36,882 nt of DNA, taken from the NCBI GenBank assembly GCA_902578675.1, contig CACHDV010000012.1:1-36882 (forward strand). Reading direction: 5' to 3'. The notes beneath the pieces are model-generated. The model searched no databases. It saw nothing but the letters and a program-made list of their open reading frames with translations, and was not told the DNA's origin. Within the stretch, counting starts at the first letter, position 1, and each line of letters starts with the position of its first letter. The position numbers and the translations under genes were made by a program. Origin of the DNA: an uncultured Alphaproteobacteria bacterium. GTDB lineage: Bacteria > Pseudomonadota > Alphaproteobacteria > Thalassobaculales > Thalassobaculaceae. This document shows positions 12,758-24,613 of this stretch, in pieces.

Positions 12758-14179
12758 CTAGGTTATACTTGAAGCTGTTTGTTGGATCTGCGCCCAAGCA
12801 TCCTTAACATGTCTCAACTCCGTGTTCGTCTGACCGATTGACCATCGTATGGCAAAATGACCGCGCACCCGGTTTTGCGTGAAGTAGGTTGTGCCACTGT
12901 CATTTAAGTCATTCAAAAGTTTCAAGTTTAATCTATCAATGTCTGGTACCTTGCCACTTTGCTTGGAAAGAAGTCTGAAGTTAAGTAGAGATAGTGATCG
13001 CGGGGCCACTAACTCAAAATTTTTAGAATCATTTATCCATTCCTCTACTTGGGAGGCAAACTCGATATGTTTTCTAATCATTTTTTGCAGCCCCCCCACC
13101 CCGTAATACCTGATGACAAACCAAAGTTTTAAAGCTCTGAACCGCCGGCCGAGTGGAATACTCCAATCACGATAATCAATTATATCTTCACTTTCCTTAC
13201 TCTTAAGGTATTCGGGTAAAATTGAAAGCGTACTTGTCAGTGCAGTGGGATCCTTCACAAAGTGAGCAGAACAATCAAAGTTCGTTAAAAGCCACTTATG
13301 AGGATTAATAACGATACTATCAGCTAACTCCATTCCGTCCGCCATCGATCTATGTTCAGGAAGTATCATTGCGGCTCCCGCCCATGCCGCATCAATGTGT
13401 AGGAAAATGTCAAACTCCTTGCACAATGTTGCAATTTTTTTGATTGGGTCAACAGCTCCAACACCTGTCGTCCCAATAGAAGCAACCACACAAGTAGGAA
13501 CAAACCCCTTGTCTAAATCGGATTGAATTTCTTTTCGTAGGGTGTTTGCGCACATAATAAATTTATTATCTGTGGGAATGAAGCGTATATTATCCTTACC
13601 AAAACCTGCAATTTTTGCCCCCTTCTCAATGGAGGAATGTGCTTCTTCAGATGTATAAACAATTAATTTTTTCTCTATAGTCATGAAGCCTAATTCATTA
13701 GTTTTCCAGGAAGTGGCTTTCTCTCGAGCAGTTAACAGCGCACAAAGTGTTGCACTGGAAGCAGAATCTTGAATAACGCCACTAAACTTCTTTGGAAGGT
13801 CAATCATACTTGCTAGCCATTGCATCATACGTGTTTCCATCTCTGTGGCAGCTGGACTAGTCTGCCACAACATACATTGTGCACCGAGTGTAGCTGTCAG
13901 CATTTCCGCTAAAACAGATGGAGGACTTGAATTGGCTGGGAAATATGCAAAAAAACGGGGATGTTGCCAGTGGGTTATACCGGGAAGAATCGTCGTTTTA
14001 AAATCGTCTATTATATTCTCCATAGGTTCGCCGTTTATTGGCGGTTTCTCTTTCAAACGATTGGATATTTCACCTGGCTTTACCTGAGAACGCACAGGCA
14101 GTTTTTCAACCGTGTCCATGTAATCAGCCATCCAATCAATAAGTTGATGACCATGCTTTCTAAACTCATCGATATCCAT
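12758..14179 (-). CDS. Pyridoxal-dependent aromatic L-amino-acid decarboxylase family protein
   Basis: HWQHPRFFAYFPANSS, EEAHSSIEKGAKIAGFG, HIDAAWAGAAMI, SIVINPHKWLLTNFDCSAHFVKD (PLP Lys), IDYRDWSIPLGRRFRALKLWFV. Confidence 0.93.
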   Translation of the reverse strand: MDIDEFRKHGHQLIDWMADYMDTVEKLPVRSQVKPGEISNRLKEKPPINGEPMENIIDDFKTTILPGITHWQHPRFFAYFPANSSPPSVLAEMLTATLGAQCMLWQTSPAATEMETRMMQWLASMIDLPKKFSGVIQDSASSATLCALLTAREKATSWKTNELGFMTIEKKLIVYTSEEAHSSIEKGAKIAGFGKDNIRFIPTDNKFIMCANTLRKEIQSDLDKGFVPTCVVASIGTTGVGAVDPIKKIATLCKEFDIFLHIDAAWAGAAMILPEHRSMADGMELADSIVINPHKWLLTNFDCSAHFVKDPTALTSTLSILPEYLKSKESEDIIDYRDWSIPLGRRFRALKLWFVIRYYGVGGLQKMIRKHIEFASQVEEWINDSKNFELVAPRSLSLLNFRLLSKQSGKVPDIDRLNLKLLNDLNDSGTTYFTQNRVRGHFAIRWSIGQTNTELRHVKDAWAQIQQTASSIT

Positions 14180-14202: not shown

Positions 14203-15324
14203 TTAAGGGTGCAAACGCTCAACAATCCTTGCCCATTCAGATTGAACAACTTCGTCCTGCTCTTTAAGAAAAAGTGCTTCATAACTCGCTTGTATAACCT
14301 TTTTGTCACCTATTTGGCCTAATGCCCACACGGCCATGGATCGAACAATTGGTTCAGGGTCAAAAAGTAACTTTGATAAAATAGGAGGCACCTCTGATAT
14401 TTTTGAATTACCAACTGCAACTAGCACATTTCGGATAAACCTATCTCTACCGATCCTCTTTATTGGCGAGCGGGAGAAATAGTTACGAAAACTCTGATCA
14501 TCTAGTAGCAGGAGTTCTTCTAGAAGTGGCAGGTTAAGTTGATCTCTTGGGATAAAAGCTATTTCACTAGCGGTTTTTGCAAACTTATTCCAAGGACACA
14601 CAGCCAAACAATCATCACAACCATATATTCTATTTCCGATGAGCTTACGGAACTCAATCGGAATGTGACCCTTGTGTTCGATCGTCAAATATGAGATGCA
14701 CCTCCTAGCATCAAGTTGATAAGGAGTAGGGAAGGCATGCGTCGGGCAGATATCCAAACATTTAGTGCAACTTCCACAGTGATCTTGCCCTACCCTATCA
14801 GGTTCTAAATCAAGGGTGGTGAAGAGTTCTCCTAAAAACAACCACGAGCCAAACTCCTTGTTTACTAAATTCGAATGTTTGCCTTGCCATCCAATTCCGG
14901 CGTTCTGGGCGAGTGGCTTTTCGAGTATAGGCGCAGTATCCACAAACACTTTAAGCTCGCACTGAAAGTATTCTCCGAGCCATCTACCAAGTGTTTTTAG
15001 TTTTTTTTTTAAAACATCATGGTAATCCCGATTACGGGCGTATACTGAAATATTTCCTCGATCAAAAGCGTTCAAGTCATTAAGCGGATTATTTTTTGGG
15101 CCATAATTGCAAGCTACCACAATAATAGATCGGGCTTCTGGCCAAAATAGCTTGGGATCCCTGCGACGACTAGCATTTTTAGCCATCCACTCCATGTCAC
15201 CAAAAAACCCATTCGATATAAAGTTGTCGAAGTTTTCTGTTACATTGCTATTCAATGACGGCGCCGTGAAACCGATAGCATCAAAACCAATTTCAAGAGC
15301 CTTCCTTTTTATAAGCTCTTTCAT
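14203..15324 (-). CDS. queG: Epoxyqueuosine reductase
   Basis: Two 4Fe-4S cysteine clusters (CGSCTKCLDICPTHAF, YGCDDCLAVCPWNKFA), AQNAGIGWQGKHSNLVNKEFGSWLFLGEL, C-terminal HEAT-like segment. Confidence 0.96.
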   Translation of the reverse strand: MKELIKRKALEIGFDAIGFTAPSLNSNVTENFDNFISNGFFGDMEWMAKNASRRRDPKLFWPEARSIIVVACNYGPKNNPLNDLNAFDRGNISVYARNRDYHDVLKKKLKTLGRWLGEYFQCELKVFVDTAPILEKPLAQNAGIGWQGKHSNLVNKEFGSWLFLGELFTTLDLEPDRVGQDHCGSCTKCLDICPTHAFPTPYQLDARRCISYLTIEHKGHIPIEFRKLIGNRIYGCDDCLAVCPWNKFAKTASEIAFIPRDQLNLPLLEELLLLDDQSFRNYFSRSPIKRIGRDRFIRNVLVAVGNSKISEVPPILSKLLFDPEPIVRSMAVWALGQIGDKKVIQASYEALFLKEQDEVVQSEWARIVERLHP

Positions 15325-15373
15325 TTAATAATCCATTTCAAGCGTTGGCCTAACTTAAAATACATTGAACACT

Positions 15374-16501
15374 TCATTTTATCGGGGCTATATCACCTAA
15401 GCTTTGTTCATCATGAAACAAGGTAGTAAACTCGGCCAGCAAACCATTCTTTATTGCTTCCCTCAATCCTCGCATTAAGTCTTGGTAATATCTAAGGTTA
15501 TGCCAGGTTAATAACATAGCCCCAAGAATTTCCCCGGATTTCACCAAGTGATGGAGATAGGCTCTGCTGAACTGTTGGCAAGCAGGACAATTACATTCGG
15601 CATCTAAAGGCCGTGGGTCAGATGCATGCCTAGCATTCCTTAAATTCACTTCACCTCTTCTTGTAAATGCTTGTCCAGTTCTGCCAGAACGAGTTGGAAG
15701 CACACAATCAAACATATCCACACCATTTTGCACTGCTGCCAATAAATCACGCGGCTTTCCGACACCCATTAAGTATCGGGGCTTATCCTCTGGTAAACAC
15801 GGAACTGTCATTTTCAAAACATTAATCATAGTTTCATGACCTTCGCCAACAGCAAGGCCACCAACTGCATAACCATCAAAACCAATTCTTTTCAGTTTTT
15901 CAGCCGATTGAATTCTTAAACTCTCAAAAATGCTTCCTTGCACTATTCCAAATAAACCAAAGCCATCTCTGTCGTTAAAGGATTGCTTTGATCGCTCTGC
16001 CCATCTCATTGACAAAAGCATCGATCTTTCTGCTTCCTCTTCAGAAACCGGAAACGGAGTGCATTCATCGAACGCCATAGTAATATTTGAACCCAAATCT
16101 TGCTGAATTTCGATCGATTTTTCCGGCGTTAATTTATGATACGAACCATCTATATGGCTTCTGAAAGTTACGCCGTCTTCATCAAGCTTACGAAGTTGCG
16201 AGAGCGACATGACTTGATAACCACCGGAATCCGTTAATATAGGTCCATCCCAACCCATAAATTTCTGAAGCCCACCTAAATCTTTAATGCGGGACGCACC
16301 CGGCCTCAGCATTAAATGGTAGGTATTACCAAGAAGTATTTGGGCACCAGTTTCTTTAACGGAAGCAGGCATCATTGCCTTCACCGTTGCGGCGGTTCCA
16401 ACAGGCATGAAAGTTGGAGTGTCTATTTTGCCATGTCGAGTTAACAGGCTGCCGCATCGAGCAAAACCGTCCTTGCAATCCACAGAAAAAGAGATCGACA
16501 T
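15374..16501 (-). CDS. tgt: tRNA-guanine transglycosylase (queuine/preQ1 tRNA-ribosyltransferase)
   Basis: [64 protein letters not shown], zinc site CNCPAC...H. Confidence 0.98.
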
Positions 16502-16557: not shown

Positions 16558-17241
16558 CTAGCGATTATTTCCAAATATTAGATTGTAGTTAGATGTTTCA
16601 ATTTCTGACCCGACCAAAGAGAATCTTGGTAGACCATCTTTTGGTAAACTGCTTATCGATCGCGATGCCGTCACACTATCTTGTGCTTCAACTATTATAA
16701 TCCAAGAGGGTGTTTCATTTTCTGGAATTTCAATGCCTTGCGCTTGACGACCCTTATTTACTACTTCCAGGTTATTTTCGGCCAAAATAGCCCCCACTAC
16801 ACCAGGCGCTTGCACAATTTCTTTAAGAAATTCATCTCGAAAATAATCTCTTAGATCATCCATAACGTCAATCTTCGGATTAAACCAGGCGATAGAACAT
16901 CCCCCGCCAAACCCATGAGAAAAATCAATAGTGATATCAGCTGTTATTCGTTCAAATTTTGTGAATTTAGCCATTACTTTTTTGGACCAATCAGACTGGT
17001 CTTTGAGTAGTTCCATATATTCGGGGTCGGCTAGATCCTGAACAACAGTTGTTTCATAGGTTGCAAAATACTTAAAAGAGGCTGTTCCATCCGCATCTAT
17101 ATATCGCCGTGCCCGATGAAAACCAGGCATCCAGACGCGCTCATCAATGTGCTCTCTGTTGTACCACTCGTTGAAATCCATTTCATCTTCATTCAAAGTC
17201 TCTGTGAAGGTCATCAGCATACCTTTTCCGTAGAGGCCCAT
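16558..17241 (-). CDS. Uncharacterised protein with two alpha+beta (dimeric ferredoxin-like/EthD or DUF4286-like) halves
   Basis: MDFNEWYNREHIDERVWMPGFHRARRYI matches the WYdeEH...PGF..aRR pattern of DUF4286/EthD-like proteins. Ends 12 bp from the next operon gene. Confidence 0.65.
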   Translation of the reverse strand: MGLYGKGMLMTFTETLNEDEMDFNEWYNREHIDERVWMPGFHRARRYIDADGTASFKYFATYETTVVQDLADPEYMELLKDQSDWSKKVMAKFTKFERITADITIDFSHGFGGGCSIAWFNPKIDVMDDLRDYFRDEFLKEIVQAPGVVGAILAENNLEVVNKGRQAQGIEIPENETPSWIIIVEAQDSVTASRSISSLPKDGLPRFSLVGSEIETSNYNLIFGNNR

Positions 17242-17253
17242 ATTTTCGCTCCA

Positions 17254-18117
17254 TTAAAATTTGTTTATTCTGTCGATAAAAATTTTCAATTTCATGCCAA
17301 CTTGACAACCAAGCTTTTCGGCCTCGCTATTAAAGTGTGATATAACACCATCATTATAAACGGATTCACCATCTCCTATTCGAGCCGACATTCCATCAAC
17401 TGTTGCCGCGATTATACCCCTTTCGTTGAGGGGCTCTAATCTCGTTATACCGGCGGCGCTCTTTCCTATTCCACCATTGTGAAAAAAGCCCGCGAAAGCA
17501 TCATGTTTCATTGCAGTTTTTGGATCTTTTCCAAGCATACCGCCATGACTACCCGAGACGACAATTTTGTCCCTATCCTTTTCAGTAACAAGAGATATTG
17601 AATCCATCAAAATAATTTCCCGCTTACTTTGGCTAGATGTTAATTCTTTTCGCGCTTCCGAATATTCCTCCGAAATCTTATCACTCGCCTTGGCCAGGGT
17701 AAGTTTATTTGCCGCTAAAATAGCGGGCATACCTTTTTCTACACCTAATAACTTTGCCGTGTTATTAACATAAGAAATTATCCCTTCGTTTCTCATGCTT
17801 TCCCCATCGCCAATCCTGCAAGAGTATGATCCTACCGTAGCAAACGGGACACCTAAGCTATCGCAATATTTGCCCCCCGATATTCCTGAGTCATCTTTGG
17901 CAAAGCCCGCGTCATTTAAAATTATACCGAGGGCTCCCGACTTTACTGCTAAAAAAGCTGCATAAGTGGCACCGTGTGACCCTGCCAAGACAACATGTCC
18001 AAAACATTGGTCACCTAGCGTTGTGACTGAATTAGCCACTACTATTTTGCTTGGTAAGACTCGATCTTTCAAAATTACCGCCAAAGTTTTTCTATTTAAA
18101 GCCTGCAGAAACCGCAA
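17254..18117 (-). CDS. Uncharacterised protein with two tandem homologous domains (GSHG...RIGDGES...G(V/I)IS repeats)
   Basis: 287 aa ORF overlapping the upstream E1 beta gene by 26 bp; the two halves align to each other (GSHGATYAAF / GSHGGMLGKD; LNDAGFAKDDSGI / HNGGIGKSAAGI; RIGDGESMRNEGIISYVN / RIGDGESVYNDGVISHFN). No family recognised. Confidence 0.75.
   Translation of the reverse strand: MRFLQALNRKTLAVILKDRVLPSKIVVANSVTTLGDQCFGHVVLAGSHGATYAAFLAVKSGALGIILNDAGFAKDDSGISGGKYCDSLGVPFATVGSYSCRIGDGESMRNEGIISYVNNTAKLLGVEKGMPAILAANKLTLAKASDKISEEYSEARKELTSSQSKREIILMDSISLVTEKDRDKIVVSGSHGGMLGKDPKTAMKHDAFAGFFHNGGIGKSAAGITRLEPLNERGIIAATVDGMSARIGDGESVYNDGVISHFNSEAEKLGCQVGMKLKIFIDRINKF
17293..17616 (-). 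repeat. Second copy of the internal protein-level duplication (aa 168-275)
   Basis: IILMDSISLVTEKDRDKIVVSGSHGG...SARIGDGESVYNDGVISHFNSEAEKLGCQVGM. Confidence 0.7.
17728..18042 (-). repeat. First copy of the internal protein-level duplication (aa 26-130)
   Basis: VVANSVTTLGDQCFGHVVLAGSHGA...SCRIGDGESMRNEGIISYVNNTAKLLGVEKGM. Confidence 0.7.
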
Positions 18118-19081
18118 CCGATTTTCTGGCCGCTTCTACGATTTGTTCAGAAGACACCCGGATCTTAGCTTCAAGGGGTGGGGCATAGGAAATTGGGACG
18201 CGAGGCGCGGCACAACGAGTTATAGGCGACTTCAGGACCGAGAATAATTGCTCGGCGACAGTAGCTGCTATCTCTGCACCGAAACCGCCCACGGAAACAC
18301 TTTCATGCGTAATTAATAGCCGGCCAGTTTTTTCAACAGAATCAAAAACCATTTGTCTATCCCACGGCCACAACGTTCGTAGATCAATCAACTCTGCAGA
18401 GATTCCCTCTGCTTGTAATAAAGTCGCTGCGTTTGCAGCGATATGCATTTGAGCTGACCAAGAAACGATTGTTATGTCATCGCCCTCTTTCTCTAGCCGT
18501 CCCTTCCCAAACGGAATTAGAGTTTCATCTTCCGGCACGTCACCTTCATAGCCCCATATATTTTTATGCTCGAGATATACAACTGGGTCGTCAGATCTTA
18601 TCGCTGTTTTTAAAAGCCCCCTATTATCTGCCGGAGTGGATGGAACCGCAACAACGAGACCAGGGATGTGGGTATACCAACTTTCTAGTGACTGGCTGTG
18701 TTGCGCTGCAGACGATCGCCACATTCCCATCGGCTCTCTTATCACCATAGGTACTTTCACCTGGCCGCCTAACATGTAACGTGCCTTTGCTGCCTGGTTG
18801 ATTAACTCATCAACGGCACAGAGAGCAAAATCGGCAAAGCGCATTTCAACAACGGGTCGTGTTCCAGCCATAGCCGCCCCTACGCTTGCCCCCATAATAG
18901 CTGATTCAGAAATAGGTGCATCAGATATTCTCTCTGGCCCAAACTCATTCAAAAGCCCCAAATATTGGCCAAATACACCCCCGCGCCCGAGATCTTCTCC
19001 TATAGCCCATACAAGCGGGTCCCTTCTCATTTCCTCTGCAAGTGCTAGCTTCGCTGCTTCGGCATAGGTCATTTTAACCAT
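18092..19081 (-). CDS. TPP-dependent 2-oxoacid/acetoin dehydrogenase E1 component, beta subunit
   Basis: MTYAEAAKLALAEEMRRDPLVWAIGEDLGRGGVFGQYLGL, PISESAIMGASVGAAMAGTRPVVEMRFADF, KVPMVIREPMG, LIDLRTLWPWD. Confidence 0.95.
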   Translation of the reverse strand: MVKMTYAEAAKLALAEEMRRDPLVWAIGEDLGRGGVFGQYLGLLNEFGPERISDAPISESAIMGASVGAAMAGTRPVVEMRFADFALCAVDELINQAAKARYMLGGQVKVPMVIREPMGMWRSSAAQHSQSLESWYTHIPGLVVAVPSTPADNRGLLKTAIRSDDPVVYLEHKNIWGYEGDVPEDETLIPFGKGRLEKEGDDITIVSWSAQMHIAANAATLLQAEGISAELIDLRTLWPWDRQMVFDSVEKTGRLLITHESVSVGGFGAEIAATVAEQLFSVLKSPITRCAAPRVPISYAPPLEAKIRVSSEQIVEAARKSVAVSAGFK

Positions 19082-20082
19082 TAAAATGCTCCTTCGCGTG
19101 GATCACCAAGGTCTTGTACATCGGAAAAAGCATTATCATCGCTGGGCCACGGCGCTTCCTTGGCAGTTTTGTATACTCTTTCCATTTCCTCCAGTGCTAT
19201 TTTTCTATGTTCATTAAGAATTTCTCGGGATATTCCCAACCTTGAAAGCAATTCTGAACATCTTTCGATTGGATCCTCTTTCCAAGCTGCTTCAACTTCC
19301 GCCGCAGGCCTATAAGAGGCTGGATCGGATGCCGTATGCCCATGCAGTCTGTAAGTGTTGAATGAAATTAGATGTGGCCCGTTCCCGTTCCTAATATTAG
19401 CAATATATTCTCGTGTTATCTCATCTACTGAGACGATGTCATTGCCATCAACTTCTATTGCTGTGATTCCCATTGATCGTGCTCTAGCTGCAGCACCTTC
19501 TCCTGATGTCATAGCATCCGTCCGGGTTGTGGAAGCGAACCCATTATTTTCACAAACAAATAAAACCGGAAGATTGAAAACACCTGACCAATTCAAACCC
19601 TCTAGGAAAGGCCCGCGGTTGATCGCGCCATCACCAAAAATGCAACATGAAATATTTGTTTCTCGCTTAAGCTTGATCGCATGCGCGGCGCCAGTGGCAA
19701 TATTTATGTTCGCCGCCACAACACCGTTGGCACCCAGCATTCCAACACTTGCATCTGCTATGTGCATCGACCCACCTTTTCCTTTACATATTCCTCCACG
19801 CCTTCCCAATAATTCAAGCATCATAGCCTCTGGATCGGCGCCTTTTGCTAGAGTATGCCCGTGGCCTCTGTGCGTACTCAGTAGAAAATCTTCCTTCATT
19901 AAATTTTTACAGACCCCCGATGCGATAGCTTCTTGTCCTATCGACAAGTGGATAGCCCCTAGAACGAGTTTATCCTGATTGGCTCTCGCTGCAGTTTCCT
20001 CAAAAGCTCTTATACGATGCATCATAATGTGGTGTTCGAGAAACCAGTCTTTGTCGATATTCTGATTAAGGGGCTGTATCAC
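19081..20082 (-). CDS. TPP-dependent 2-oxoacid/acetoin dehydrogenase E1 component, alpha subunit
   Basis: HLSIGQEAIASGVC, THRGHGHTLAKGAD, GKGGSMHIAD, TPP motif GDGAINRGPFLEGLNWSGVFNLPVLFVCENNGFA, YRLHGHTASDP. Its stop overlaps the E1 beta ATG by 1 bp (TAATG). Confidence 0.95.
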   Translation of the reverse strand: MIQPLNQNIDKDWFLEHHIMMHRIRAFEETAARANQDKLVLGAIHLSIGQEAIASGVCKNLMKEDFLLSTHRGHGHTLAKGADPEAMMLELLGRRGGICKGKGGSMHIADASVGMLGANGVVAANINIATGAAHAIKLKRETNISCCIFGDGAINRGPFLEGLNWSGVFNLPVLFVCENNGFASTTRTDAMTSGEGAAARARSMGITAIEVDGNDIVSVDEITREYIANIRNGNGPHLISFNTYRLHGHTASDPASYRPAAEVEAAWKEDPIERCSELLSRLGISREILNEHRKIALEEMERVYKTAKEAPWPSDDNAFSDVQDLGDPREGAF

Positions 20083-20235: not shown

Positions 20236-20784
20236 GTGCATGCACTAAGACCAATATTTTTCGGTGTAATAGCTATGGCTATAGTCGTTGCTGTATCGAA
20301 TGTCGCCGTCGGTTATCCGATAAACGACTGGATAACATGGGGAGCTTTGACATATCCTGTAGCATTTTTAGTTACTGATGTGATGAACCGATCATTTGGG
20401 GCCTCAAACGCCAGAAAAGTAGTATATGGAGGTTTTTTAGTTGGGGTTATTTTTTCAATTTGGCTTGCCGACATTAGGATCGCACTAGCCTCAGGCACAG
20501 CTTTCTTAACAGCGCAATTAATCGATATATTTGTTTTTAATAAAGTCAGTCAAAAGACGTGGTGGCAAGCCCCTTTTATTTCCTCCTCACTATCGTCAGC
20601 AATCGACACCGTGTTATTCTTTTCCATTGCTTTTATCGGATCTGGGCTCCCATGGGTTACATGGGCTGCCGGCGATTACGCCATAAAATTAGCCATGGCC
20701 ATGTTATTGTTGTTGCCATTTAAGTTGGTCATTTCCATAATTACAAACCAAGCTACGGTCGTTCCTAGGGACACCACACCTTAG
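20236..20784 (+). CDS. yhhQ: Queuosine precursor transporter (YhhQ/VUT family)
   Basis: GALTYPVAFLVTDVMNRSFGASNARKVVYGGF, AQLIDIFVFNKVSQKTWWQAPFISSSLSSAIDTVLFF. GTG start with SD aaggag 8 nt upstream. Confidence 0.93.
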   Translation: MHALRPIFFGVIAMAIVVAVSNVAVGYPINDWITWGALTYPVAFLVTDVMNRSFGASNARKVVYGGFLVGVIFSIWLADIRIALASGTAFLTAQLIDIFVFNKVSQKTWWQAPFISSSLSSAIDTVLFFSIAFIGSGLPWVTWAAGDYAIKLAMAMLLLLPFKLVISIITNQATVVPRDTTP

Positions 20785-20786
20785 AA

Positions 20787-21830
20787 ATGGATGTCGACTT
20801 ATTTGATTACGAACTACCCCCAGATTTTATTGCACAAACACCGATAAATCCAAGGGATGCTGCCCGTCTCTTGGACCTTACGAAAGGGGGCCTAAGAGAT
20901 CGCTTTATTCAGGAACTTCCATTCATACTGGAACCAGGCGACTTACTCGTCGCTAACAACACCCGTGTAATACCCACGAAATTACAAGGTCAGTGTGCAA
21001 GCAAAAGGATAACCGTAAACCTCCATAAAAAGATTTCTCCGAGCATATGGTTCGCTTTTGCACGACCTGCAAAACGGGTTGCCGAGGGCGATTTGATAAT
21101 ATTTCATGACTCGGTCGTTGCAAAAGTGTTGAAAAGAAACCGCGGTGAACTGCTTTTAGAGTTTCAATTAAATGATAAAGATTTAATGGGTTTTCTTCAA
21201 CAGCGTGGCAGTATGCCACTTCCTCCTTACATCAAACGCAATGACCTGTCATCTAATATCGCAGACCTAAAAGATTACCAATCCATTTTCGCCGAACATG
21301 AAGGGGCTGTAGCAGCACCTACGGCTAGCCTTCACTTTACGGATCGCCTTGTTGCTAGTTTGAAAAAAAATAGTATAGACATTGCCTATCTCACACTTCA
21401 CGTAGGAGCTGGAACATTTCTTCCAGTAAAAGTAAAAGATACAGATAACCACGATATGCACAGCGAGTGGGCCGAATTGGGATCTAAAGCTGTAGAAAAA
21501 ATTAAAAACGTAAAAGCAAGAGGCAATAAAGTTATTGCACTTGGCACCACCAGCCTGCGCGTTTTAGAAACGGCATCTATTGGCGGCACGATAAAACCGT
21601 TTGCGGGCGATACTGATTTGTTTATAACCCCTGGGTTTAAGTTCAACGCAACAGACGCACTTATAACAAATTTCCATTTACCAAAATCTACGCTCATAAT
21701 GCTAGCATCTGCTTTGGCTGGCAGAGAGAGGCTCTTAAATGCATACGAGCACGCAAAACGGGAAAATTATCGGTTTTTTTCCTATGGCGACGCGTGTTTG
21801 ATTGACCATTTCAAAGATAACAATATTTGA
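20787..21830 (+). CDS. queA: S-adenosylmethionine:tRNA ribosyltransferase-isomerase
   Basis: YELPPDFIAQTPINPRDAARLL, GSMPLPPYIKR, TASLHFTDRLV, LTLHVGAGTFLPVK, TDLFITPGFKFNATDALITNFHLPKSTLIMLASALAGRE. Confidence 0.98.
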   Translation: MDVDLFDYELPPDFIAQTPINPRDAARLLDLTKGGLRDRFIQELPFILEPGDLLVANNTRVIPTKLQGQCASKRITVNLHKKISPSIWFAFARPAKRVAEGDLIIFHDSVVAKVLKRNRGELLLEFQLNDKDLMGFLQQRGSMPLPPYIKRNDLSSNIADLKDYQSIFAEHEGAVAAPTASLHFTDRLVASLKKNSIDIAYLTLHVGAGTFLPVKVKDTDNHDMHSEWAELGSKAVEKIKNVKARGNKVIALGTTSLRVLETASIGGTIKPFAGDTDLFITPGFKFNATDALITNFHLPKSTLIMLASALAGRERLLNAYEHAKRENYRFFSYGDACLIDHFKDNNI

Positions 21831-23313: not shown

Positions 23314-24018
23314 ATGACGTCATCTTATAACCAGAGAGATTGGACTGTTCATCCAAGCTATTTTTCCGAGAATTATAAGTCCACTCATCTGCGGAGCCCT
23401 ACTAAAGCGCCTATAAAAATTGAGCAAACAAACTCGGAATTGACGGCACCTAGCTTTTTTCCATTAATCAACCACGAGCAAGAAAATGACTTAACCAAAA
23501 ACGGGGCAGTAAACGGGCAACAACCTTTGGGCGAACGTATCGTGGTTACCGGCCGCGTTGTTGACGAAAACGGGAAGCCTCAACCAAATACCTTAATTGA
23601 AATTTGGCAATGTAATTCATCTGGACGATATATTCACGCAGCAGACCAACACGACGCACCTTTGGACCCAAATTTTTTTGGTGCAGGAAGATGCATCACA
23701 GATAACAATGGTATTTATAAATTTTACTCGATAAAGCCAGGCGCGTATCCATGGGGCAACCACAAAAATGCTTGGAGGCCAGCCCACATTCATTTCTCTC
23801 TCTTTGGTCCCGCATTTGCGACAAGACTTATAACCCAGTCATATTTCCCTGGCGATCCTTTATTAGAATTGGATCCTATTTTTCAATCAACCCCAAAAAA
23901 AGCAAGAAAACTACTCATAAAGACTTTCGACATTGAGGCCACCGAAGAAGGTTTTGCTTTAGGCTATAAATTTGATTTCATTTTGCGGGGGCCCAAAGCA
24001 ACTCCAATGGAGAAATAA
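23314..24018 (+). CDS. pcaH: Protocatechuate 3,4-dioxygenase, beta subunit
   Basis: GERIVVTGRVVDENGKPQPNTLIEIWQCNSSGRYIHAADQHDAPLDPNFFGAGR; Fe-ligand region YPWGNHKNAWRPAHIHFSLFG. Confidence 0.95.
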   Translation: MTSSYNQRDWTVHPSYFSENYKSTHLRSPTKAPIKIEQTNSELTAPSFFPLINHEQENDLTKNGAVNGQQPLGERIVVTGRVVDENGKPQPNTLIEIWQCNSSGRYIHAADQHDAPLDPNFFGAGRCITDNNGIYKFYSIKPGAYPWGNHKNAWRPAHIHFSLFGPAFATRLITQSYFPGDPLLELDPIFQSTPKKARKLLIKTFDIEATEEGFALGYKFDFILRGPKATPMEK

Positions 24019-24019
24019 C

Positions 24020-24613
24020 ATGTCGTTTAAACAAACACCCTCTCAAACGATTGGCCCGTTTTTCGCTTACGGTCTCACCCCCAAACAATATGGCTACAAT
24101 GAAATTAAAGATATTGCTTCCAATGACTTAAATTCAGAGGGAACCATTGGGGAAAGAATAAGCATTGAAGGGATTGTATTTGACGGGAATAATGAACCTG
24201 TAGACGATGCATTAATTGAAATTTGGCAGGCATCTAGTTCTGGCCTGTATGTTACGTCAAAAAACCTAAAAGATACGAACGATAGTTTTTCCGGTTTTGG
24301 GCGATGCGGCACAGGCACAAATCCGCAACGAAAATTCTCGTTCACAACAATTAAACCAGGCGCTACCGGCGATAATCAAGCGCCTCATATTAATTTTACT
24401 GTTTTCATGAGGGGTCTTCTTTCTCATGTCTATACAAGGATGTATTTCCCTGAAGAGGAAGGAGCCAATCAACACGATAGTTTTCTCCTCAATGTTCCGA
24501 AAAACCGACGTCAGACACTTATTGCCAAACAAATTCCGTCCAATAAAGGTAAAGCATACCAATTTAATATTTACATGCAGGGAGTCAATGAGACAGTCTT
24601 CTTCGATGTTTAA
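24020..24613 (+). CDS. pcaG: Protocatechuate 3,4-dioxygenase, alpha subunit
   Basis: TPSQTIGPFFAYGLTP, GIVFDGNNEPVDDALIEIWQASSSGLY, FSGFGRCGTG, APHINFTVFMRGLLSHVYTRMYFPEE; immediately downstream of pcaH. Confidence 0.93.
   Translation: MSFKQTPSQTIGPFFAYGLTPKQYGYNEIKDIASNDLNSEGTIGERISIEGIVFDGNNEPVDDALIEIWQASSSGLYVTSKNLKDTNDSFSGFGRCGTGTNPQRKFSFTTIKPGATGDNQAPHINFTVFMRGLLSHVYTRMYFPEEEGANQHDSFLLNVPKNRRQTLIAKQIPSNKGKAYQFNIYMQGVNETVFFDV

What the first reader, a model, noticed from the sequence alone, without database searches (positions are those of the whole stretch)
16558..20082. Four-gene operon coupling a TPP-dependent E1 alpha/beta pair to two uncharacterised proteins, with no E2/E3
The minus-strand genes are almost fused: E1 alpha/E1 beta overlap by 1 bp, E1 beta/tandem-repeat protein by 26 bp, and the last gap is 12 bp. 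Known acetoin, pyruvate and branched-chain dehydrogenase operons usually continue into a lipoyl E2 and an E3. Here they are replaced by a double-domain unknown protein and a double ferredoxin-like (DUF4286/EthD-like) protein. This could be a stand-alone 2-oxoacid/acyloin decarboxylation or ligation module with its own accessory proteins. The module function is inference.
Basis: partly seen in the sequence, partly recalled or inferred. Interest (0 to 1): 0.7.

Follow-up and report, generated by a model that had tools for sequence, protein, structure and literature searches.

The report
E2-less thiamine-enzyme gene module
A marine alphaproteobacterium carries a pyruvate-dehydrogenase-like enzyme pair (E1) without its usual lipoyl partners; across hundreds of genomes the pair travels instead with a second thiamine enzyme and a never-studied duplicated protein, which points to an undescribed route for breaking down a carbon compound.

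Summary
The four minus-strand genes are real. E1α and E1β overlap by 1 bp; the 26-bp overlap comes from taking too early a start for the third gene, which probably starts at TTG 18072. The same-strand run continues into tgt, queG and a PLP decarboxylase.

The suspected coupling holds and is stronger than proposed. In 36 genomes of the order, this E1 lineage occurs in exactly the 22 that have the third gene (REP). In 385 genomes of the class, 36 of 37 E1 genomes have REP (chance about 4.5; Fisher p=1e-39). This genome has it on another contig. No E2 accompanies this E1.

REP is a duplicated domain with a confident model (pLDDT 95) and no full-length PDB match. The fourth gene is a tandem ABM-like barrel, only loosely tied.

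Best reading: a lipoyl-free thiamine module that breaks down or rearranges a branched hydroxy-keto acid, often TRAP-imported. The gene association is well supported. The chemistry is inference, resting partly on a PDB ligand recalled from memory.

The parts
19081..20082 (-). E1 alpha subunit (ThDP-binding), GTG start
   Evidence: PF00676 E=9.8e-74; ThDP motif GDG...ENN kept against human PDH E1 alpha
18092..19081 (-). E1 beta subunit
   Evidence: PF02779 and PF02780; aligned to solved E1 beta proteins; member of a 59-row clade apart from PDH E1 beta
17254..18072 (-). REP: duplicated protein of unknown function, probable start TTG 18072 (the ORF could start at 18117)
   Evidence: halves 30% identical, E=3e-17; start by alignment of homologues; pLDDT 95.4; no PDB match at E<=0.001
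16558..17241 (-). DUFC: tandem dimeric alpha/beta-barrel (ABM/EthD-like) protein, loosely associated
   Evidence: Foldseek to anthrone-oxidase-like 5f9p, E=2.5e-10; family is paralogous and in 61 of 385 genomes
15374..16501 (-). tRNA-guanine transglycosylase (tgt), same-strand continuation of the run, 56-bp gap
   Evidence: ORF and translation, naming by recognition; synteny kept in related genera
14203..15324 (-). epoxyqueuosine reductase (queG), same-strand continuation, 49-bp gap
   Evidence: ORF and translation, naming by recognition; synteny kept in related genera
12758..14179 (-). PLP-dependent decarboxylase, same-strand continuation, 23-bp gap
   Evidence: ORF and translation, naming by recognition; synteny kept in related genera

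Best explanation
The genes are the local part of a conserved three-component, lipoyl-free thiamine-diphosphate (ThDP) module: (1) an E1 alpha/beta heteromer that works without E2/E3, (2) an acetolactate-synthase-like ThDP enzyme (ALSL, in this genome at contig C4:1836-3563), and (3) REP, a duplicated protein that I infer to be an enzyme. Shown: the E1 ThDP motifs are intact, the three genes are inherited together, and no E2 accompanies them. Inferred: the module breaks down or rearranges a branched 2-hydroxy-3-oxo acid of the acetolactate type, imported by a TRAP transporter in relatives that have one. REP would act on that acid (isomerisation, decarboxylation or hydrolysis); the ThDP enzymes would cleave the resulting alpha-hydroxy-ketone or 2-oxo acid and pass the ThDP-bound acyl anion to an aldehyde, ketone or 2-oxo-acid acceptor instead of to lipoamide. 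DUFC is probably an ABM-like auxiliary protein added in the window's own lineage.
For: Phyletic identity: order level, E1 lineage in exactly the 22 of 36 genomes with REP; class level 36 of 37, p=1e-39; ALSL in 34 of those 37, p=8e-43. Linkage: of 80 REP loci 48 have E1 alpha, 46 E1 beta, 48 ALSL, 32 all three; the operon E1a-E1b-ALSL recurs. No E2: order genomes mostly have about two E2 genes, and the PDH one sits beside its own ~44% identical E1 beta; E2 is near 2 of 80 REP loci only, next to a second E1 pair. Independent recruitment of another E1 lineage beside REP-ALSL in L078, L094, L099, L102. E2-free carboligation by E1 alpha/beta pairs is known (PMC12247030). Substrate hints: DctP beside the module is nearest to 4p8b; REP beside OiaX/OiaK-like genes in haloarchaea.
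Against: No assay exists for any member of the module. The acetolactate ligand of 4P8B is from memory and could not be checked. OiaX- and OiaK-like neighbours score below their curated cut-offs. No close DctP was found in the window's order, so uptake there is unknown. The Thermus sister E1 has a small lipoyl protein, so the wider E1 lineage may use lipoyl transfer in some species. E3 was not searched. REP in this window has Asn at the conserved Asp199.
Confidence: 0.45

Rival explanations
1. It is the E1 of an ordinary 2-oxoacid or acetoin dehydrogenase complex that borrows E2/E3 encoded elsewhere (from PDH or OGDH); REP and ALSL are further enzymes of the same catabolic pathway, not replacements for E2.
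For: E1 fold and motifs are typical; every well-sampled genome of the order has PDH and OGDH E2 genes that could be borrowed; the Thermus relative has a dedicated lipoyl protein.
Against: In the order E2 is nearly universal (33 of 36) while this E1 is in 22, so no E2 matches its distribution; no E2 lies beside this E1 in the loci examined; ALSL, not E2, follows E1 beta in the operon form.
Confidence: 0.3
2. The three genes are a linked catabolic cluster whose members act on different intermediates of a larger pathway (with SDR, FAH, LLM and TRAP genes), with no direct hand-over between them; REP may even be non-enzymatic.
For: SDR, FAH, LLM and TRAP genes occur near many of the loci; REP occurs without E1 or ALSL in haloarchaea and in 11 class-level genomes.
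Against: Accessory genes vary between lineages while E1, ALSL and REP stay together even when unlinked on the chromosome, which suggests a tighter functional tie.
Confidence: 0.2
3. The operon belongs to queuosine metabolism, since it is embedded between yhhQ/queA and tgt/queG.
For: Synteny with queA, tgt and queG is conserved in the window's genera and in Thalassobaculum-like genomes.
Against: Most loci outside this lineage (Neoroseomonas, Microvirga, other marine alphas, gammas) showed no queuosine genes nearby. No queuosine step known to me uses ThDP.
Confidence: 0.05

Closest known systems
Acetoin:DCPIP oxidoreductase (AcoA/AcoB) and other alphaKADH2 E1 alpha/beta pairs such as KbDH-alpha/beta
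   Same: Two-subunit E1-type ThDP enzymes, some of which do carboligation without E2 (PMC12247030).
   Different: Those act in acetoin breakdown or sugar branching; here the partners are REP and ALSL. No activity is known for this lineage.
Pyruvate and branched-chain 2-oxoacid dehydrogenase E1
   Same: Same Pfam domains and ThDP motifs.
   Different: No E2 in the locus or following the E1 lineage; separate clade; below curated PDH E1 alpha cut-offs.
Acetohydroxyacid (acetolactate) synthase large subunit / glyoxylate carboligase (for ALSL)
   Same: Three TPP-enzyme domains; nearest solved structures are these enzymes.
   Different: Below all the AHAS equivalog cut-offs shown; genomic partners are E1 and REP.
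DUF1805 proteins (YunC/TA1206 type) (for REP)
   Same: Sub-threshold Pfam hits and a 56-column local structural match to 1qw2.
   Different: REP is longer, duplicated, and below the gathering score.
3-oxo-isoapionate pathway (OiaX, OiaK)
   Same: Haloarchaeal REP genes lie beside OiaX-like and OiaK-like genes.
   Different: Those neighbours are below the equivalog cut-offs, and no such genes lie near the window's locus.

Membership tests
2-oxoacid dehydrogenase complex (PDH, BCKDH, acetoin DH) | E1 alpha and beta catalytic domains with intact ThDP motifs | tested here: met
2-oxoacid dehydrogenase complex (PDH, BCKDH, acetoin DH) | Dedicated lipoyl E2, in the operon or co-distributed elsewhere | tested here: not met
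   None in the window; E2 near only 2 of 80 REP loci and beside a second E1 pair; E2 distribution does not match. Own assembly has no PF00198 match but is 62% complete
2-oxoacid dehydrogenase complex (PDH, BCKDH, acetoin DH) | Dedicated E3 | not tested
   No E3 search was made
PDH E1 alpha (NCBIfam TIGR03182, TIGR03181) | Above curated cut-off | tested here: not met
   293 of 394 bits and 210 of 411 bits
E2-independent alphaKADH2 carboligase | E1 alpha/beta pair without genomic E2 | tested here: met
E2-independent alphaKADH2 carboligase | Carboligation or acyloin cleavage without lipoamide | not testable with these tools
   Needs an enzyme assay
Acetolactate synthase (for ALSL) | TPP_enzyme N, M and C domains | tested here: met
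Acetolactate synthase (for ALSL) | Above AHAS equivalog cut-offs | tested here: not met
   Best acetolactate synthase models 390 of 673 and 374 of 538 bits
DUF1805 (for REP) | Above Pfam gathering score | tested here: not met
   23.3 of 29.5 bits
DUF1805 (for REP) | Same fold | tested here: inconclusive
   Local match to 1qw2, 56 columns, probability 0.95 but E=0.15; that 1qw2 is a DUF1805 protein is from memory
Dimeric alpha/beta barrel (ABM/EthD) superfamily (for DUFC) | Tandem ferredoxin-like barrel fold | tested here: met
   117 PDB matches at E<=0.001, best 2.5e-10, probability 1.00
DUF4286 (for DUFC) | Above Pfam gathering score | tested here: not met
   17.3 of 25.8 bits

The most novel reading that the evidence does not exclude
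REP is a new enzyme family (duplicated, without a full-length PDB counterpart) acting on branched 2-hydroxy-3-oxo acids, and E1 alpha/beta + ALSL + REP form an undescribed catabolic pathway in which two ThDP enzymes hand an acyl carbanion between substrates with no lipoamide or CoA step.
Probability: 0.3. Interest if true: 0.8.

Novelty: new variant of a known kind. Interest (0 to 1): 0.6.

Why it matters
Stand-alone E1 alpha/beta genes are usually annotated as pyruvate or acetoin dehydrogenase. This lineage, found in about one tenth of the sampled Alphaproteobacteria (37 of 385 genomes), almost always comes with two fixed partners and no E2, so those annotations are probably wrong for it. The result also hands biochemists a testable partner set for a protein family with no known function and no full-length solved relative, and names a substrate class to try first.

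Tried and rejected
(a) DUF1805 and IMS hits on REP: below cut-off. The IMS (Y-family polymerase) hit rests on a shared N..A..GV..GM stretch and was set aside.
(b) Queuosine link: lineage-specific synteny only.
(c) DUFC as a core member: its family is in 61 of 385 genomes, often with several matches per genome, and its association with REP (odds ratio 8, p=9e-10) is far weaker than that of E1 or ALSL.
(d) A close DctP in the window's order: none in 36 genomes.
(e) Checking the 4P8B ligand: the source paper is not held and the library does not mention the entry.
(f) Literature searches for DUF1805 function, apionate/RuBisCO-like clusters and a described E1 + ALS + TRAP cluster found nothing relevant.
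(g) ALSL in the plasmid collection: no match.

Full report
What is there. The window holds, on the minus strand, E1 alpha (19081-20082), E1 beta (18092-19081), a duplicated protein here called REP (17254 to about 18072) and a tandem ferredoxin-like protein here called DUFC (16558-17241). E1 alpha and beta share one base (TAATG). The 26-bp E1 beta/REP overlap is not real if, as the alignment of homologues indicates, REP starts at TTG 18072. The same-strand run continues into tgt, queG and a PLP decarboxylase with gaps of 56, 49 and 23 bp, and this order is conserved in related genera. The genome is a 1.67-Mb assembly, 62% complete; its nearest named relatives are marine Rhodospirillaceae and SAR116-type genomes.

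The E1 pair. Both subunits keep the ThDP motifs of solved E1 enzymes. E1 alpha is well below the curated PDH cut-offs. In a maximum-likelihood tree E1 beta belongs to a 59-row clade (support 100/99) apart from E2-linked PDH E1 beta proteins. Its sister in the tree is a Thermus plasmid E1 with a free 82-aa lipoyl protein and a TRAP transporter; the tree tool flagged that long-branch join as unsure.

Coupling to REP. Of 36 genomes of the order, 22 have REP. The E1 beta lineage at 69-100% identity (next tier at most 46%) is in exactly those 22. Over 385 genomes drawn evenly from the class, REP is in 47 and the E1 lineage (E at most 1e-100) in 37; 36 of those 37 also have REP, Fisher p=1e-39. Five of the 47 REP hits are half-length; without them 34 are shared, p=1e-37. 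These tests treat genomes as independent, so the p-values overstate the evidence; the sampling across many families is what carries the argument.

The missed third member. Around 80 REP loci from the genome collection an acetolactate-synthase-like enzyme (ALSL) recurs: E1 alpha is in 48, E1 beta in 46, ALSL in 48, DUFC in 18, and E1 alpha, E1 beta and ALSL together in 32. Many of these loci are cut short by contig ends, so the counts are lower bounds. In several genera the operon is E1a-E1b-ALSL, with ALSL standing where E2 would be. At class level ALSL is in 36 genomes, 34 of which have E1 and REP. In 33 genomes with full REP and E1 (the window's own left out), REP lies within 10 kb of E1 or ALSL in 30. 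The window's own genome has ALSL at C4:1836-3563, next to genes recognisable as sdhCDAB. In L078, L094 and L099 (and L102, with a doubtful ORF in between) a different E1 lineage, about 43% identical, occupies the same E1a-E1b-REP-ALSL arrangement, which reads as independent recruitment.

No E2. PF00198 proteins in the order mostly number about two per genome, and the PDH one sits beside its own, about 44% identical, E1 beta. E2-like sequence occurs near only 2 of the 80 REP loci (L100, L109), next to a second, distant E1 pair. In the window's genus, G003, G004 and G005 have a separate E2-linked E1 beta, so the window's E1 is not the stand-in PDH. The own assembly has no PF00198 match at all, which its incompleteness explains. 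E3 was not searched.

REP. AlphaFold gives pLDDT 95.4. Foldseek finds no PDB match at E at most 0.001; the most credible local match is 1qw2 (TA1206, which I recall as a DUF1805 protein), 56 columns. Pfam DUF1805 is hit below its cut-off by 12 of 19 members. Both halves carry GSHG, DAG and SARIGD motifs; residues conserved in 92% or more include His33, Asp54, Arg86, Asn103, Asp157, His176, Asp199, Arg231 and Asn248. The window's copy has Asn for Asp199, unlike its sisters L049 and L050, so its second site may be altered. One relative at 29% identity is fused to a carboxymuconolactone-decarboxylase-type domain (L044).

DUFC. pLDDT 90.2; fold of anthrone-oxidase-like and ABM-type tandem barrels. 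Its family is paralogous (five matching stretches in this genome) and its link to REP is weaker, though REP-DUFC adjacency is conserved in the window's order, also where E1 lies elsewhere.

What it may do. Where a transporter lies next to E1 or ALSL it is often a DctP-type TRAP system whose binding protein is by far nearest to PDB 4p8b (E=4e-117 in Neoroseomonas, 6e-121 in Azospirillum, 2e-101 in Thermus). I recall 4P8B as an acetolactate-bound protein from the EFI screen. A review confirms that this screen found 2-acetolactate as a TRAP ligand (PMC5812351), but the entry itself could not be checked. Haloarchaeal plasmids put REP beside OiaX-like and OiaK-like genes, an SDR, an aldolase and a TRAP system. 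The OiaX/OiaK substrate, 3-oxo-isoapionate, is by my recollection of its structure a hydroxylated acetolactate. Together these suggest a branched 2-hydroxy-3-oxo acid as the common substrate type and REP as the enzyme that acts on it. This step is inference. E2-free carboligation by E1 alpha/beta pairs is established for Ao:DCPIP oxidoreductase and KbDH (PMC12247030), so the E1 need not have an E2 to work.

Verdict. As a kind it is a new variant: known ThDP enzyme families in a lipoyl-free partnership with an uncharacterised protein family.

Noticed in passing
window 14203-16501 and 20236-21830: The module is flanked by queuosine genes: tgt and queG downstream on the same strand, a yhhQ-type transporter and queA divergent upstream; the arrangement is conserved in related genera.
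   Followed up: partly
window 17254-18072 (REP residue 199): The window's REP has Asn where 98% of relatives, including its closest sisters L049 and L050, have Asp in the second-half DAG motif; a real substitution or an assembly error.
   Followed up: partly
L179 1833-7103 (own genome contig C4): In the window's lineage the ALSL gene sits directly after what look like succinate dehydrogenase genes sdhCDAB, away from E1 and REP; order kept in several genera (L180-L187).
   Followed up: partly
L078, L094, L099, L102: A different E1 alpha/beta lineage (about 43% identical) is found in the same E1a-E1b-REP-ALSL arrangement, as if recruited independently.
   Followed up: partly
L129, L130, L133 (haloarchaeal plasmids): REP homologues annotated as hypothetical sit beside a RuBisCO-like (OiaX-like) protein, an OiaK-like kinase, an SDR, an HpaI-type aldolase and a TRAP transporter, with no E1 or ALSL.
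   Followed up: partly
L061, L065, L066, L069 around REP-DUFC: In Thalassobaculum-like genomes REP-DUFC is followed by hydantoinase A/B-type genes, and in L061 a fumarylacetoacetate-hydrolase-family gene lies between REP and DUFC.
   Followed up: partly
L044 4996-6177: A distant REP relative is fused to a carboxymuconolactone-decarboxylase-type domain (Pfam CMD, E=1.5e-7).
   Followed up: no
L191 4033-8992 (Thermus plasmid): Sister E1 alpha/beta followed by a stand-alone 82-aa lipoyl-domain protein and a DctPQM TRAP transporter: an E1 with a free lipoyl carrier and no E2 core.
   Followed up: partly
window 23314-24613: Two adjacent genes that look like intradiol (protocatechuate-type) dioxygenase subunits beside TauD- and LLM-type oxygenase genes; synteny conserved in relatives. 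Named by eye only.
   Followed up: no
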